Notes: a model not told the origin generated them from the sequence alone. A stretch of DNA of 64,000 nt from Campylobacter sp. CN_NE2 (GCF_027797465.1 NZ_CP115608.1:124001-188000), one strand, 5' to 3'; positions 8,303 to 14,192 are shown, counted from the first letter of the stretch. Made by a program: numbers and translations.

Positions 8303-8339
8303 AATTTGCATTGAATTATTTTGCAAATTTGCTTTAAAT

Positions 8340-8400
8340 TGTCATTGCGAGACTTGCCGTTAGGCAAGTCGAAGCAATCCAGCCACGCTGACCAGGCGTT
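8340..8400 (+). repeat. GTCATTGCGAG-type hairpin repeat, left flank of the island
   Basis: TGTCATTGCGAGACTTGCC opens the element. It contains the hairpin GACTTGCC-gtta-GGCAAGTC (8351-8370), followed by GAAGCAATCC. The first ~23 bases closely match 13989-14012 at the right edge of the restriction island. The rest of this 235-base gap contains two AAATTTGCAAATTT palindromes (8403, 8511) and a possible TAAAAT -10 box at 8496. Confidence 0.65.
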
Positions 8401-8537
8401 TTAAATTTGCAAATTTATTCTGAAATCATCGTCGTTATCATCTAAATTTACAAATTCCAAAATTCATTTTAACTCCGATTTTATAAACATTTAGCTAAAA
8501 TTCAAAGTTCAAATTTGCAAATTTAAAAGGTTAAAAA

Positions 8538-10613
8538 ATGTCAATTATCAGCGAAATTTTAAAAGATAGCGATTATAAACTTGATTTATTTTCGCCTACT
8601 AGCATACAAAATTTAGAAAAGCAAATAACACAAAAACCTAACAAAAACGCAAGTGGGGTGGGCTTTACCTACTATACAAAATGTCTAATCCGCGATAAAG
8701 AAGTCAAACTTACCCCCGAAGAAATCGTTCGCCAACTATATTTAGACAAGCTAATTGGCGAATACGGCTATACCAAAACACGCATACAATTAGAATATCC
8801 CGTGCATTTTGGGCGTGAAGTCAAACGAGCAGATATTGTTATCTTTGATGACATTCAAATCACTGCCCCGTATATTATCGTAGAACTCAAAAAACCAAAA
8901 GCCAAAGACGGCAAAGAACAACTCAAAAGTTATTGCAACTCCACAGGAGCAACCATTGCCGTATGGAGCAATGGTGAAGTAATCTCATATTATCACCGCA
9001 AAGACCCGAATTATTTCGAACCAATTCCAAATATTCCACAAAGTGGCAAAAGTTTAAAAGATGTTTTAAAACAAGACTTTACATTTGATGATTTAAAAAA
9101 AGCCGACAAACTGCAAACACAAAAAATCACGCTTAAAAGCATTGTATTGGATATGGAAGACGAAGTTTTAGCCAATGCAGGAGTTGATGTATTTGAAGAA
9201 GTTTTTAAACTGATTTTTATTAAATTATTTGACGAATTAGAAGGCGCAAGAAATGAAACACGCAATTTAGAGTTTAAAAACTACGGCGAGAGCGATGGCG
9301 AACTTAAAGTTAAAATCGAAAATCTTTTTTCAAAAGCCAAGAAAAAATGGGATGGTGTTTTTGCAGGCGATGACAAAATCAAACTATCGCCGTCGCATTT
9401 GAGTATTTGCGTAGCGTCATTAGAAAGCATTAAATTATTTAATTCAAATTTAGAAGTCATTGATGACGCATTTGAATATTTAGTCAATAAATCCGCCAAA
9501 GGCGAAAAAGGGCAGTATTTCACACCCCGTTATGTGATTGATATGTGCGTAAAAATGCTAAATCCAAAGCCTGATGAAACTATGATAGACACCGCCAGTG
9601 GTAGTTGCGGTTTTCCGATACACACTTGTTTTTATGTATGGAAAAACATTTACAAAAGCAAAGGTTTAGAACCGTCTGATTTATTTACTGCCGAAAAGAA
9701 AATTCCCGAATGCGAAGACTATGTCAAAGAAAAAGTCTTTGGTATAGACTTTGATGAAAAAAGTGTGCGAGTGTCTAAAATGCTAAATTTAATCGCAGGA
9801 GACGGACACACCAATGTATTGTATCTCAATTCCATTGACTATGCCCGTTGGGACGAATTTACCAAAGACGAAGAGTGGGAAGATATTTATTTTGACGGAT
9901 TTAAACGCCTTAAAAATCTGCGTTCAACCAAAAACGAAAACCGAGATTTTGAATTTGATATTTTAATGGCAAATCCACCATTTGCAGGTGATATTAAAGA
10001 GCCACGCATACTTCACGCTTACGAACTTGGCAAAAACGCTAACGGCAAATGGCAACAAAAAGTGGGGCGAGATATTTTATTTATCGAACGCAACCTAAAT
10101 ATGCTTAAATCAGGCGGTAGAATGGCGATTGTCTTGCCACAGGGTAGATTTAATAATTCAAGCGATAAGTATATCCGTGAATTTATTAGCGAACACGCAC
10201 GAATTCTAGCAGTCGTGGGGCTTCACGGCAATGTTTTTAAGCCACACACAGGCACTAAAACAAGCGTTTTATTTGTGCAGAAATGGGACGATAAACTCTG
10301 CCCTAAAAGGGACGATTACAATATATTTTTTGCCACGATGAGTAAGCCAAGCAAGGATAATTCTGGCGATAAAATCTACTATCCATTGCAAGATACGCAC
10401 GGGCATTGGGTTGTAGAACACGATTTATTTAATCCACATTTAGCAGGAGATGAGCCTATACGCAAAAAGGACGAAAGCGAAGACACATTTCAAAAACGCT
10501 TAACGGAGTATCAAGACAATCTCCAAAAATATGCCGAATTTGACAAAGACGGCATCGCCGAAGCCTTTGCCGATTTTGTCAAAGCTGAGAATTTGAGTTT
10601 TTGGAGAGAATAA
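8538..10613 (+). CDS. Nuclease-methyltransferase fusion: HSDR_N-like domain plus HsdM-type N6-adenine methylase
   Basis: A 691-residue protein. Residues ~60-155 look like the type I HsdR N-terminal nuclease fold, with a PD-(D/E)xK-like set: E86, D99 (RADIVIF) and E116-x-K118 (VELKK). After a linker, residues ~325-600 are an N6-adenine methylase of the HsdM type: GQYFTPRYVIDMC, the SAM-binding TASGSCGFP and catalytic NPPF at 479-482. A nuclease and a methylase on one chain with a separate specificity subunit recall BcgI-like (type IIB/IIG) systems; a plain type I M subunit with an extra domain is the alternative. No translocase gene is present. The stop codon abuts the start of the HEPN-motif gene. 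Confidence 0.75.
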   Translation: MSIISEILKDSDYKLDLFSPTSIQNLEKQITQKPNKNASGVGFTYYTKCLIRDKEVKLTPEEIVRQLYLDKLIGEYGYTKTRIQLEYPVHFGREVKRADIVIFDDIQITAPYIIVELKKPKAKDGKEQLKSYCNSTGATIAVWSNGEVISYYHRKDPNYFEPIPNIPQSGKSLKDVLKQDFTFDDLKKADKLQTQKITLKSIVLDMEDEVLANAGVDVFEEVFKLIFIKLFDELEGARNETRNLEFKNYGESDGELKVKIENLFSKAKKKWDGVFAGDDKIKLSPSHLSICVASLESIKLFNSNLEVIDDAFEYLVNKSAKGEKGQYFTPRYVIDMCVKMLNPKPDETMIDTASGSCGFPIHTCFYVWKNIYKSKGLEPSDLFTAEKKIPECEDYVKEKVFGIDFDEKSVRVSKMLNLIAGDGHTNVLYLNSIDYARWDEFTKDEEWEDIYFDGFKRLKNLRSTKNENRDFEFDILMANPPFAGDIKEPRILHAYELGKNANGKWQQKVGRDILFIERNLNMLKSGGRMAIVLPQGRFNNSSDKYIREFISEHARILAVVGLHGNVFKPHTGTKTSVLFVQKWDDKLCPKRDDYNIFFATMSKPSKDNSGDKIYYPLQDTHGHWVVEHDLFNPHLAGDEPIRKKDESEDTFQKRLTEYQDNLQKYAEFDKDGIAEAFADFVKAENLSFWRE

Positions 10614-11336
10614 ATGAGTGGGCAATTAAAAGCATATAAAGAACAAATGGAAATAGATTATTTTGCCTATTTTGCAAAGGCTTATTTTGCTTTTAATTGT
10701 TATTTAAAAGATAAATTTTCTAACTGCAAGGCAGATAGAGATAAAATAGACAAAATGAAAAATGCAAATTCTTCAATATTCACAAGATTATTAAAAGAAG
10801 ATTTATTTATTCAAAATTTAATAGAATTAAAGAATAAATTATCTAATAGATTTATTATAAACGATAATGAACCAGTATGTTTTGAACATGTAAAAATTAA
10901 ATCTTTTCAAGATAATGAAATTTGTAAGAATCAAAAACATTATACAAAAACATATTATATAAAAATACTGTCCAATGGGCGAGTTATTGTAAGAATTGAT
11001 AACAATGAAATAATAGACTGTCCATATAATGAATTTGAAAATAAATTAAATAATTCTTCATTAACAGATACACAAAAAAATAGAGTAAGGTCATATATAA
11101 CAAATGAGATAAATAGTTATGTCAAAGATATAACACCATTGATAACAAAATTATCAAACAAAGAAACTTTAACTGATGATGAAAAAAAAGATATTTATCG
11201 AGCATTTATTGAAATAATCTATTCAATGAGAAATGCTTTATTTCATAGTGAAATAGACCCAGAGAACACAGAAACTAAACAAGCGTATGAAAACGCATAC
11301 TGGCTTTTACGAGAATTTGTAAAAAAATTGAGTTAA
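10614..11336 (+). CDS. HEPN-motif protein in restriction island, putative RNase effector
   Basis: A 240-residue mostly helical protein whose only recognisable feature is a C-terminal Rx4H motif with Asn after the Arg: R206-N207-ALF-H211 (YSMRNALFHSE). This is the HEPN ribonuclease signature as found in many abortive-infection and toxin proteins. No signal peptide or membrane segment is visible. The start codon directly follows the methylase stop and fic follows after 9 bases, so the genes are co-transcribed. Base composition is very AT-rich: 11 G+C in the 60 bases at 11041-11100. That suggests a separate origin from the methylase gene. No MNT-type antitoxin gene is adjacent. Catalytic activity is inferred from the motif only. 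Confidence 0.55.
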   Translation: MSGQLKAYKEQMEIDYFAYFAKAYFAFNCYLKDKFSNCKADRDKIDKMKNANSSIFTRLLKEDLFIQNLIELKNKLSNRFIINDNEPVCFEHVKIKSFQDNEICKNQKHYTKTYYIKILSNGRVIVRIDNNEIIDCPYNEFENKLNNSSLTDTQKNRVRSYITNEINSYVKDITPLITKLSNKETLTDDEKKDIYRAFIEIIYSMRNALFHSEIDPENTETKQAYENAYWLLREFVKKLS

Positions 11337-11345
11337 GGAGATTAT

Positions 11346-12422
11346 ATGAAAGAATTTATTCCACAAGAGTTGCCTGTAAATTTTGAAATAACTCCAAAAA
11401 TTTATAAAGCTTTAAATAATGCTTCAAGAAAATTAGGTGAATTAAATGGTTTTATTAGAACTATACCAAATCAAGATATTTTAATCAACTCATTGGTTTT
11501 GCAAGAAGCCAAAGATTCTAATGCAATCGAAAATATTATAACAACTCATGATGAGTTATTTTTAGCTAAAATAGATGAAGCTAAAATTACACAGTCAGCC
11601 AAAGAAGTTATAAATTACGAAAAAGCACTCAAAAAAGGATATTTGCTAATTAAAAAAGATAGATTATTCTTAAATCGCCATATTTTAGAAATTCAAAGGC
11701 GATTAGAACGCCATTCCGCAGGATTTCGAACACAAAGCGGAACAATGCTTAAAAACCCAGCCACAGGCGAAATCAAGCATATTCCACCGCAAAATAGTGC
11801 TGATATACTTCGCTTAATGTCAAATTTAGAAAAATATATAAATGATGAATTAGACGATTTAGACCCACTAATCAGACTTGCTATTATTCACTATCAGTTT
11901 GAAACCATACACCCATTTTATGATGGTAACGGTAGAACTGGGCGTATAATCAATGTATTGTATCTTACATACAAAGGTCTTTTGGATTTGCCTATTTTAT
12001 ATCTTAGTGCGTATATTATAAAAAACAAATCTAAATATTATCATTTATTAGAACAAGTAAGTAAAAATTCAAACTGGAATGACTGGATAGAATATATTTT
12101 AAAAGGTATTGAGCAAACTTCTATTGCTTCGGTAAATTTAATCAAAAGTATAGACAAAGCTATGTCGGATTTTAGTAGTCTTTTGCAAGATAAATCACCA
12201 GAAATTTATAGTAAAGATTTTGTGGAATTATTATTTGCTTATCCATATACAAAAATCGAATCCGTAAAAAACAAATTGGGTATTTCAAGGCAAACAGCTT
12301 CTAAATATTTAAGAATATGTGAGAACTTGGGAGAATTTGAATGTGTAAAGCTCGGTAGAATAAATTATTTTATTAATATTCGTTTATTTAAGATTTTAAA
12401 GAAAGGATTGATTATTGAATAA
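11346..12422 (+). CDS. Fic-family AMP-transferase with N-terminal inhibitory motif and C-terminal winged helix
   Basis: A 358-residue Fic protein. The full catalytic motif HPFYDGNGRTGR is at 189-200. The N-terminal domain contains S58-NAI-E62-N63, matching the (S/T)xxxE(G/N) inhibitory helix of class II Fic enzymes, whose Glu blocks ATP binding. Residues ~285-345 form a winged helix (IESVKNKLGISRQTASKYLR). Such proteins transfer AMP to hydroxyl side chains of protein targets, and some regulate their own expression. AGGAG lies 8 bases before the ATG. It sits between the methylase and specificity genes; Fic genes inside type I loci are known in Campylobacter. The target is unknown. Confidence 0.85.
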   Translation: MKEFIPQELPVNFEITPKIYKALNNASRKLGELNGFIRTIPNQDILINSLVLQEAKDSNAIENIITTHDELFLAKIDEAKITQSAKEVINYEKALKKGYLLIKKDRLFLNRHILEIQRRLERHSAGFRTQSGTMLKNPATGEIKHIPPQNSADILRLMSNLEKYINDELDDLDPLIRLAIIHYQFETIHPFYDGNGRTGRIINVLYLTYKGLLDLPILYLSAYIIKNKSKYYHLLEQVSKNSNWNDWIEYILKGIEQTSIASVNLIKSIDKAMSDFSSLLQDKSPEIYSKDFVELLFAYPYTKIESVKNKLGISRQTASKYLRICENLGEFECVKLGRINYFINIRLFKILKKGLIIE

Positions 12423-12493
12423 CATGTTAAAAAAAATCAAAATTTTTAACATATTATAGAAATATGTTAAAAATAGCATAATTTTTAACATAT
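12420..12493 (+). promoter_or_regulatory. Palindromic operator-like array before hsdS
   Basis: The 87-base gap between fic and hsdS carries repeated TTAACATAT half-sites. TAACATGTTA is a perfect palindrome at 12420-12429. TTTTTAACATAT (12443-12454) and ATATGTTAAAAA (12462-12473) form a perfect 12-bp inverted repeat with a 7-base spacer. A fourth half-site, TTTTTAACATAT, is at 12482-12493. A possible -10 (TAGCATAAT, 12474-12482) lies between sites. A dimeric regulator, possibly the Fic winged helix, is a reasonable ligand. Confidence 0.6.
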
Positions 12494-12509
12494 AAAAAAG
12501 GACAACAAA

Positions 12510-13976
12510 ATGGCTTTAAATTTAAACCAAACATTGCAAAATAAATATCCGAATTTGGAAATTAGCGTTTTGAAATATTCAGACGCTATGAAAGATAATG
12601 AGTGTAAAAGAATTGATGCAGAATATTTTAAAAAGTCTGCATTAATGCTATTGAATAAAATTTGCAATATGCCACATATTATTTTAGGAGAAGATTATAA
12701 TATTTCAAAATTGGCAGGTTTTGAATTTACTAAGTATTTTTTAGAAGAAAATATGAATTCAAGCGAAAACTATATAGCATTAACAAGTAAAAATATTCAA
12801 AATGAAAGATTGGACATATCGGATTATATTACTATTGATAAAAATGTTGCTGATAAAAATTTAATTCGTTCAAAAATATTAAAGCACGATGTTGTCTTGT
12901 CTTATACTGGTGAATATAGACGCTCATTAGTAATGCAAACCAAACAGGAATTTCAACTTGGTCCGAATATTTGCAGAATTAGACAAATTAAAAATAATGT
13001 TAGTCCTTTTGTTGTATCTACCTTTTTTAACTCAAAAATAGGTCAAATCATTTTAGATAAGGAAAAAACATTATCAGCACAGCCGACAGTAGCAATGTCA
13101 AGATTAAGAAAATTACCTATCCCCCTTTTCCCCCTTGAATTTCAACAACAAATTGAGCAAATGGTGCGTCAGTCGCACGAGTGTTTGGAGCAGTCCAAAG
13201 ACCTTTACCGAGAAGCGGAAGTTTTGTTATACCAAGAACTCGGGCTAAATCCGCAAAATCCATTAGCCACTATCACGCCTGTTTCACAGAGCCTGAACTT
13301 TTCCGTGCGAACGCTTAAAGAAAGTCTGCATACCACAGGTCGCCTTGATAGCGAATATTATCAAATCAAATACGACGAAATCGAAAAGGTGATTAAAAAT
13401 TATAGTGGTGGATATTTAAAACTAAAAGATATAGGCGAGTTTAAAAATGGCAGTTTGATTTCAGAAGATTTTTATGTAGAAAAAGCTCAAAGAGCCTATA
13501 TTCGCATAAAAGAACTTTCTTTTAACGAACCGATTAAAATTGCAGAAAGTGTTTTTATTGATGATAATTTTGAAGCAAAAAATGAAACAACCGTAAAAGA
13601 AAATGATTTTGTTATCGCAACTATCGGTAATACTATCGGAAAAGTAAATTTAATACCAAAAGAACTTAACGGAAGTTTTATTTCAAACAATACTTCCAAA
13701 TTTAGTTTGTTTGATAATTATATTTTGCCTGAATTTTTAGAATTGCTTTTAAGAAGTATTTTCGTGCAAGAGCAAATTTCGAGAGAATTTACGCAAACAG
13801 CACAACCTAAAATTTCAAATTATTCACTTGAAAATATCATAATTCCAAAAATAAATTTGCAAATTCAAACTCAAATTGCCGAAAAAATAAAACAATCCTT
13901 TGCTTTGCGAGTAAGAGCTAACGAGCTACTACAATCAGCGAAAACAAAGGTAGAAACGGCGATTAAACAGGCGTAA
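12510..13976 (+). CDS. hsdS: Restriction-modification specificity subunit (HsdS type)
   Basis: A 488-residue S subunit with two target-recognition domains, at roughly 50-210 and 285-465. Each is followed by a helical spacer; the first is QQQIEQMVRQSHECLEQSKDLYREAE and the second ends with a similar QTQIAEKIKQSF segment. Two recognition domains imply a bipartite DNA target. The first half of the gene is AT-rich whereas the central spacer region (~13150-13350) is GC-richer, a mosaic typical of recombining hsdS genes. It has its own probable operator/promoter. It is expected to guide the methylase-nuclease fusion encoded at 8538. Confidence 0.88.
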   Translation: MALNLNQTLQNKYPNLEISVLKYSDAMKDNECKRIDAEYFKKSALMLLNKICNMPHIILGEDYNISKLAGFEFTKYFLEENMNSSENYIALTSKNIQNERLDISDYITIDKNVADKNLIRSKILKHDVVLSYTGEYRRSLVMQTKQEFQLGPNICRIRQIKNNVSPFVVSTFFNSKIGQIILDKEKTLSAQPTVAMSRLRKLPIPLFPLEFQQQIEQMVRQSHECLEQSKDLYREAEVLLYQELGLNPQNPLATITPVSQSLNFSVRTLKESLHTTGRLDSEYYQIKYDEIEKVIKNYSGGYLKLKDIGEFKNGSLISEDFYVEKAQRAYIRIKELSFNEPIKIAESVFIDDNFEAKNETTVKENDFVIATIGNTIGKVNLIPKELNGSFISNNTSKFSLFDNYILPEFLELLLRSIFVQEQISREFTQTAQPKISNYSLENIIIPKINLQIQTQIAEKIKQSFALRVRANELLQSAKTKVETAIKQA

Positions 13977-13988
13977 ATTTGTTTAATC

Positions 13989-14156
13989 TGTCATTGCTAG
14001 AATTTGCCGTTATGAGTAGGGTGGCATCCTTGCCCACCAAAAATTCGGTAACCTTATGGTGGGCAAAATGCCAACTCTACGATAAATTTAAAAAACCAAG
14101 CAGTGAATTAAACTTTGGCGATTACTTCGTTTTACTTCGTAAAACTCGTAATGACA
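13989..14156 (+). repeat. MITE-like element at the right edge of the island
   Basis: The element has near-perfect terminal inverted repeats, TGTCATTGC (13989-13997) and GTAATGACA (14148-14156). An internal imperfect palindrome runs from GGCATCCTTGCCCACCA (14023-14039) to TGGTGGGCAAAATGCC (14057-14072). Its left end resembles the repeat at 8340. Part of the inner palindrome recurs at 58116-58136. The 65-residue open frame across it (13979-14176) shows no protein-like features. Confidence 0.65.
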
Positions 14157-14192
14157 AAATAAATTTACGCTTATAATTCTATCGCAAACACG

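What the first reader, a model, noticed from the sequence alone, without database searches (positions are those of the whole stretch)
8538..13976. Compact restriction island combining nuclease-methylase fusion, HEPN, Fic and specificity genes
Seen: four tightly spaced genes, with a PD-(D/E)xK-like plus N6-methylase fusion, a protein ending in RNALFH (HEPN signature), a complete Fic enzyme with an inhibitory SxxxEN motif, and a two-TRD specificity subunit. Known: HEPN and Fic proteins act as RNA- or protein-targeting toxins and occur in defence islands. Inference: DNA restriction may be backed by two growth-arrest effectors released when the methylase or specificity subunit fails or is inhibited by a phage. 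I know of Fic genes in Campylobacter type I loci, but not of this exact four-gene layout.
Basis: partly seen in the sequence, partly recalled or inferred. Interest (0 to 1): 0.8.

Follow-up and report, generated by a model that had tools for sequence, protein, structure and literature searches.

The report
Swappable toxin slot inside restriction operon
A two-gene DNA-cutting immune system in a Campylobacter-family bacterium carries two exchangeable stop-growth genes between its halves, and one of them (Fic) probably also controls the targeting subunit through palindromic DNA sites whose sequence tracks the Fic protein's own DNA-reading helix.

Summary
The four genes are real. Gene 1 (8538-10613) fuses a PD-(D/E)xK nuclease to an N6-methylase and, with S (12510-13976), forms a BsaXI/BcgI-like (type IIB-like) enzyme without HsdR. 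Gene 2 belongs to a family absent from Pfam with an invariant RxxxxH (HEPN-type) motif, strongly linked to this RM-S pair. Gene 3 is SoFic, a known toxin and phage-defence family. The four-gene order recurs in two other Campylobacteraceae, but the RM-S interval is an exchangeable slot: relatives carry GmrSD+HEPN, DUF3800, Schlafen/Abi-like genes, Fic alone, another RxxxxH protein, or nothing, and a same-species genome lacks the island. An obligate four-part system is therefore not supported; an accessory back-up role stays plausible (an idea published in 2013). New: SoFic genes are flanked by ~28-35-bp palindromes. In this genome the only two copies lie between Fic and S. Across lineages and phyla the half-site covaries with the recognition helix of Fic's winged helix (partial Mantel r 0.48-0.61, p<=2e-4). 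Fic is thus probably an operator-binding regulator of S as well as a toxin. DNA binding, toxicity and defence are untested here.

The parts
8538..10613 (+). RM subunit: PD-(D/E)xK nuclease fused to N6-adenine methylase (type IIB-like)
   Evidence: Pfam HSDR_N_2 and N6_Mtase; BsaXI RM in PDB E 1.6e-25; catalytic residues conserved in 111 relatives
8826..8900 (+). codons 97-121 of the RM gene: RAD...ELKKPK nuclease motif (D99, E116, K118)
   Evidence: aligned by phmmer with BsaXI D90, E105, K107; invariant in 110 of 111
10614..11336 (+). HEPN-like gene (HEPN-A family), putative RNase
   Evidence: alignment A3, 13 members, R206 and H211 invariant; confident AlphaFold model; no fold match
11229..11246 (+). 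RNALFH motif (codons 206-211)
11346..12422 (+). SoFic AMPylase with N-terminal inhibitory motif and C-terminal winged helix
   Evidence: Fic_N, Fic, SoFic-like_C; PADLOC SoFic; PDB SoFic
12285..12311 (+). Fic recognition helix SRQTASKYL (codons 314-322)
   Evidence: covaries with operator half-site across loci
12424..12452 (.). palindrome A, candidate Fic operator
   Evidence: one of two copies in the genome; none in shuffles of the window; conserved in L034, L062
12464..12491 (.). palindrome B, candidate Fic operator, just upstream of S
12510..13976 (+). S subunit, two target-recognition domains
   Evidence: Methylase_S in two stretches; S subunits 5ybb/3okg in PDB
8318..14174 (.). island absent from same-species genome G091, where about 0.9 kb with a 253-aa ORF stands instead
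   Evidence: blastn of window against L159: matches end at 8317 and resume at 14175

Best explanation
The core is a BsaXI/BcgI-like (type IIB-like) restriction-modification enzyme made of RM and S subunits only. The space between the RM and S genes is an exchange slot that in Campylobacteraceae and Helicobacteraceae takes one or two accessory defence-type genes. Here the cargo is a putative HEPN RNase, of a family that travels with this RM-S pair, and a SoFic AMPylating toxin. Fic most likely has a second job: its C-terminal winged helix binds the two palindromes at 12424-12491 and controls transcription of S, so that RM, HEPN and Fic are made together and S separately under Fic control. When restriction fails, HEPN and Fic are thought to halt growth as a second line of defence. 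Shown by sequence: architecture, intact motifs, slot exchange, HEPN-RM-S linkage, the palindromes and their covariation with the recognition helix. Inferred: DNA binding, direction of regulation, toxicity, protection and triggers.
For: RM-S without HsdR in this genome and in most relatives. Different cargo in the same slot on near-identical RM genes. HEPN-first searches land beside RM in 4 of 5 Campylobacterota hits and in all viral-contig hits, while RM occurs in only 28 of 397 genomes. Two palindromes unique in the genome. Inverted pairs in 44 of 51 SoFic loci (52 of 102 flanks) against 61 of 521 control flanks. Half-site tracks the recognition helix, partial Mantel 0.61 (n 28) and 0.48 (n 27, scripted), p<=2e-4. 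Precedents: CccR autorepression through inverted repeats (PMC9755527); SoFic toxicity and phage defence (PMC12249575).
Against: No experiment on these proteins. Foldseek finds no HEPN match for the HEPN-like model. In solitary SoFic loci L165 and L166 the array lies between convergent genes, where control of a neighbour is hard to see. 7 of 51 SoFic loci show no inverted pair. A promoter for S is not clearly recognisable. The half-sites behind r 0.61 were read by eye, though the scripted version agrees. Two to three of the classes in the code rest on single loci.
Confidence: 0.6

Rival explanations
1. One integrated four-part system: HEPN and Fic are held inactive by the RM or S protein and released when that protein is inhibited, as PrrC is by EcoprrI.
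For: Same four-gene order in three Campylobacteraceae; HEPN-A linked to RM-S; PrrC precedent (PMC3710099).
Against: Each accessory gene occurs without the other and RM-S occurs without both; unrelated cargo sits on ~98% identical RM genes.
Confidence: 0.15
2. Loose defence-island clustering: HEPN and Fic are independent passengers in a convenient insertion site, and the palindromes serve only Fic autoregulation.
For: Great cargo variety; SoFic is often solitary (20 of 40 not beside R-M); arrays also occur in solitary loci.
Against: HEPN-A is nearly confined to RM-S loci; in RM-Fic-S loci the array stands directly before S rather than before Fic.
Confidence: 0.2
3. The palindromes are RNA hairpins (a terminator or an antitoxin RNA for Fic), not operators.
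For: Near-perfect 13-14-nt inverted repeats; SoFic elsewhere has a downstream antitoxin, and no AS1-like ORF exists on the coding strand here.
Against: Half-sites covary with the DNA-recognition helix; outer length stays within about 28-35 bp and arrays surround a TATAAT in type I loci; no Rfam match.
Confidence: 0.05

Closest known systems
BsaXI / BcgI type IIB restriction-modification, (RM)2S
   Same: nuclease-methylase fusion plus separate two-TRD S, no helicase; D99/E116/K118 align with BsaXI D90/E105/K107
   Different: RM is 691 aa against 916; genes are split by accessory cargo; BsaXI E73 aligns with Q84 (nearest acid E86); double cleavage untested
SoFic phage-defence AMPylase (EcSofic, Shewanella SoFic)
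   Same: domains, FIC motif and class II inhibitory motif
   Different: inside an R-M operon, no AS1-like antitoxin ORF on the coding strand, palindromes before S
CccR of Yersinia pseudotuberculosis (Fic-HTH toxin and autorepressor)
   Same: Fic enzyme with a C-terminal HTH and inverted-repeat operators (PMC9755527)
   Different: CccR is a secreted effector; its repeats are 10 bp with a 26-bp spacer before its own gene; here 28-29-bp palindromes before S
HEPN genes in R-M operons, including R-M + RloC-like HEPN + DOC (Anantharaman 2013)
   Same: three-level idea of DNA, RNA and protein attack (PMC3710099)
   Different: that HEPN is fused to an ABC ATPase; this one is a small stand-alone family not in Pfam, with a type IIB-like enzyme
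Defence genes embedded in type I R-M operons (TgvAB, C. jejuni RloF)
   Same: accessory defence genes between hsd genes (PMC11411939)
   Different: type IIB-like host operon, different cargo, documented exchange of cargo

Membership tests
Type IIB (BcgI/BsaXI-like) R-M | nuclease and methylase fused in one RM polypeptide with intact motifs | tested here: met
Type IIB (BcgI/BsaXI-like) R-M | separate two-TRD S subunit and no HsdR/translocase | tested here: met
   S in two stretches; no HSDR_N family match in the genome
Type IIB (BcgI/BsaXI-like) R-M | cuts both sides of a bipartite site as (RM)2S | not testable with these tools
   needs biochemistry
Methylation-associated defence system (MADS) | MAD2 and MAD5 above curated cut-offs | tested here: not met
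   301.8 of 720 bits and 120.4 of 400 bits
HEPN superfamily | conserved RxxxxH motif | tested here: met
   R206 and H211 invariant in 13 members
HEPN superfamily | HEPN fold or match to a known HEPN family | tested here: inconclusive
   model pLDDT 88.6 with the motif at the end of helix 188-211 before the last helix, but no Foldseek, Pfam or hhalign support
HEPN superfamily | RNase activity | not testable with these tools
   needs biochemistry
SoFic | Fic_N, FIC motif, class II inhibitory motif, SoFic-like C-terminal winged helix | tested here: met
   PADLOC SoFic 369 bits
SoFic | NCBIfam equivalog cut-off (NF046030) | tested here: not met
   339.9 of 550 bits: homologue of the family, not certified as an equivalog
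SoFic | toxicity and phage protection | not testable with these tools
   shown for EcSofic only (PMC12249575)
Fic-HTH autoregulator (CccR-like) | binding of the HTH to inverted repeats at a promoter | not testable with these tools
   indirect support: covariation of helix and half-site

The most novel reading that the evidence does not exclude
SoFic is an operator-tethered guard. While bound to its palindromes before S it represses S and is itself kept inactive or deAMPylating (DNA binding shifts Coxiella CbFic2 to deAMPylation, PMC10628234). Loss of that complex during phage takeover would both raise S, arming restriction, and free the AMPylating toxin, so one protein couples restriction level to growth arrest. 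The helix-to-half-site code would make such toxin-controlled R-M loci readable from sequence across bacteria.
Probability: 0.2. Interest if true: 0.85.

Novelty: new variant of a known kind. Interest (0 to 1): 0.6.

Why it matters
SoFic is a common phage-defence toxin whose control is unresolved, and a 2023 paper states that DNA binding by SoFic had not been shown (PMC10628234). The palindromes and the recognition-helix code give a cheap, concrete test, and predict that a toxin controls the specificity subunit (or the fic-hsdM part of type I loci) of restriction systems. The RM-S slot shows how an immune operon swaps accessory genes while keeping the same enzyme, and adds a HEPN-like family without a Pfam model that travels with type IIB-like enzymes.

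Tried and rejected
Type I system with a remote HsdR: rejected, no HSDR_N family match in the genome. MADS: both models far below cut-off. HEPN-A as a known Pfam, PADLOC or NCBIfam family: no match. Fold confirmation by Foldseek: two models, no HEPN match, perhaps hampered by the beta insert. Profile comparison with the GmrSD-linked HEPN_MAE family and with the RNEIFH family: insignificant. An AS1-like antitoxin ORF between Fic and S: none on the coding strand. RNA hairpin reading of the palindromes: disfavoured by the helix covariation. A first palindrome statistic that required two G/C per 9-mer missed the AT-rich sites and was replaced. Rfam: only two tRNAs in the window. Consensus promoter scan: 36 sites against 28 in shuffles, not informative. 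Phage collection search for HEPN-A: one weak partial hit; plasmids: one remote hit, not followed.

Full report
WHAT IS THERE. The window lies in a single-contig genome of 1.54 Mb (G000), in the same family as Campylobacter majalis and the C. jejuni group by the kinship labels. Between pyrC and an ftsW-like gene lie four + strand ORFs: 8538-10613, 10614-11336, 11346-12422 and 12510-13976. Gaps are 0, 9 and 87 bp. GC is 37.1% in gene 1, 23.2% in gene 2, 28.3% in gene 3, 26.9% in the first 591 bases of gene 4 and 33.4% in its remainder, so cargo and first TRD look like later arrivals. In a same-species genome (G091) the interval 8318-14174 is missing; about 0.9 kb with a 253-aa ORF of unknown function stands there.

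THE ENZYME. Gene 1 has HSDR_N_2 (nuclease) and N6_Mtase domains. Its best PDB match is the RM subunit of the type IIB enzyme BsaXI (E 1.6e-25). In that alignment D99, E116 and K118 fall on BsaXI D90, E105 and K107, three of the four nuclease residues found essential there (PMC11997821); the fourth, E73, falls on Q84, with E86 two residues on. The three residues are invariant in 110 of 111 relatives, and the SAM motif and NPPF are equally conserved. The genome has one match to this methylase family and none to HsdR. In a scan of one genome per species, 517 stretches encode relatives; among the best 80, from Campylobacterota, Bacteroidota, Lachnospiraceae, Treponema and Pasteurellaceae, RM is mostly followed directly by S. 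I call it type IIB-like; cleavage on both sides cannot be tested here. MADS fails its cut-offs.

THE SLOT. The order RM-HEPN-Fic-S recurs in a deer-gut Campylobacter MAG (L034/L053; RM 97%, HEPN 92%, Fic 91%, S 46%) and in Campylobacter majalis (L062; 89, 72, 94 and 56%). Other relatives carry different genes between RM and S: GmrSD_N plus HEPN_MAE_28990 (L136, L140, L145), DUF3800 plus a 167-aa protein (L137-L139), SLFN_AlbA_2 alone (L141; split in L142) or with an RNRSFH protein (L144), an RNEIFH protein of another family (L146-L148; broken in L150), Fic alone (L143/L056), a decayed HEPN-A (L038), or nothing (L149 and the more distant loci). A divergent RM branch has RM-Fic-S (L171, L176, L180) or RM-Fic-Abi remnant-S (L185). 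On the RM tree nine cargo states need 11 changes. The clearest case is L143 against L144, two genomes of one sister family: DNA is 97.9% identical through RM and 97.1% on the S side, yet the cargo is Fic in one and AlbA_2 plus the RNRSFH gene in the other, and the 3' end of that gene is left behind Fic. So cargo is exchanged as a cassette. Type I operons of the C. jejuni group show a parallel, hsdR-HamA-HamB-hsdS-fic-hsdM (L177, L178). Defence genes embedded in type I operons are known (TgvAB, RloF; PMC11411939).

THE HEPN-LIKE GENE. No library recognises it. In a 13-member alignment, with distant members at 22-29% identity to the window protein, only F90, Y203, R206, L209 and H211 are invariant, which includes both residues of the HEPN RxxxxH motif. 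AlphaFold gives a confident model (pLDDT 88.6, pTM 0.79) with the motif at the end of a long helix before the last helix and a beta insert in the middle. Foldseek finds no HEPN, so the fold is unproven. When this gene is searched for first, without reference to RM, 4 of 5 Campylobacterota hits lie in the RM-S operon (the exception is G202/L212), and all four viral-contig hits (three distinct) lie beside the RM gene, three with S between; in L218 no S was called. RM itself occurs in 28 of 397 Campylobacterota genomes. L220, from Bacteroidota, sits next to a GmrSD-like gene instead. Outside the Campylobacter slot the usual order is RM-S-HEPN (L070, L080, L087, L093, L107, L128). It is a partner of this enzyme family, not a chance neighbour.

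THE FIC GENE. It is a SoFic homologue: Fic_N, Fic and SoFic-like_C domains, complete HPFYDGNGR, inhibitory SNAIEN; it is below the NCBIfam equivalog cut-off. SoFic of E. coli is a toxic AMPylase that protects against phage and has a 47-aa antitoxin downstream (PMC12249575). No such ORF lies on the coding strand here. In Campylobacterota 55 of 298 genomes have a SoFic gene; 20 of 40 loci examined lie beside R-M genes.

The Fic-S gap holds ATGTTAAAA-N11-TTTTAACAT (12424-12452) and ATGTTAAAA-N10-TTTTAACAT (12464-12491). With spacers of 6-14 these are the only two copies in the genome, the reversed control pattern has none, and shuffles of the window give none. They are kept in L034 and L062 and partly in L056. 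Similar arrays accompany SoFic in general: inverted 8-mer pairs occur in at least one flank of 44 of 51 loci (52 of 102 flanks) against 61 of 521 control flanks. In type I loci they lie between hsdS and fic around a TATAAT; in RM-Fic-S loci between Fic and S; in solitary loci mostly downstream of Fic. The half-site differs between lineages and tracks the recognition helix of the Fic winged helix: SRQ and TRQ with TGTTAA; HRQ, HRE and HRD with TGTCGA; HRH with TGTAGA; TRK with TGGGTA; YRD with TGTTGT; SRP with TGTAAA, including a Hymenobacter plasmid (L225) from another phylum; QRK with TGTACC; ERH with TGGTAG. With AMPylase-domain distance removed the correlation is 0.61 (28 loci, half-sites read by eye) and 0.48 (27 loci, half-sites chosen by script), p<=0.0002 in both. 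Sites bound by another protein, or RNA hairpins, would not be expected to track this helix. CccR, a distant Fic-HTH protein, represses its own promoter through inverted repeats (PMC9755527), and Coxiella CbFic2 is regulated by DNA binding; that paper says DNA binding by SoFic had not been shown (PMC10628234).

MECHANISM. Most likely RM, HEPN and Fic are co-transcribed, S has its own promoter overlapped by Fic operators, Fic sets the S level, and HEPN and Fic act as growth-arrest back-up. The first part rests on gene spacing and the operators, the last on family knowledge. Direction of regulation, triggers and targets are unknown. Solitary loci with arrays between convergent genes (L165, L166) are unexplained.

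NOVELTY. The parts and the general idea are known (PMC3710099). New, as far as the searched library shows, are the type IIB-like slot with exchangeable cargo, the HEPN-like partner family without a Pfam model, and the SoFic operators with their recognition code and their place before S. The library lacks most subscription journals, including the 2005 survey of C. jejuni type I loci, so absence there is weak evidence.

Noticed in passing
L177, L178, L174, L181, L182: Type I operons of the C. jejuni group carry a Hachiman pair (HamA, HamB) between hsdR and hsdS, and SoFic between hsdS and hsdM.
   Followed up: partly
L056, L059, L060, L062, L067, L086, L090, L105, L120; fused in L068, L078, L098, L103: Many RM-S loci have a second half-length S gene (about 240-290 aa) downstream, and some have one S protein of about 715-727 aa, the size of both together: a possible third TRD for specificity change. 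The window lacks it.
   Followed up: no
L165, L166: Solitary SoFic genes with palindrome arrays downstream, between convergent genes; what these arrays control is unclear.
   Followed up: no
L038 (G048): RM and HEPN-A are both broken by stops or frameshifts while S is intact: a decaying copy of the system.
   Followed up: partly
window 8303-8420: Upstream of the island lies a stretch with tens of diverged copies in the same-species genome G091, a dispersed intergenic repeat that might help exchange of the island.
   Followed up: no
L224 1674-6041 (Acetobacter plasmid): SoFic directly upstream of a DNA methyltransferase gene, with a palindrome upstream of Fic: a possible SoFic-R-M pairing outside Campylobacterota.
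   Followed up: no
L220 4196-6855: A Bacteroidota HEPN-A relative sits beside a GmrSD-like gene instead of RM-S, echoing the GmrSD plus HEPN_MAE cargo of L136.
   Followed up: no
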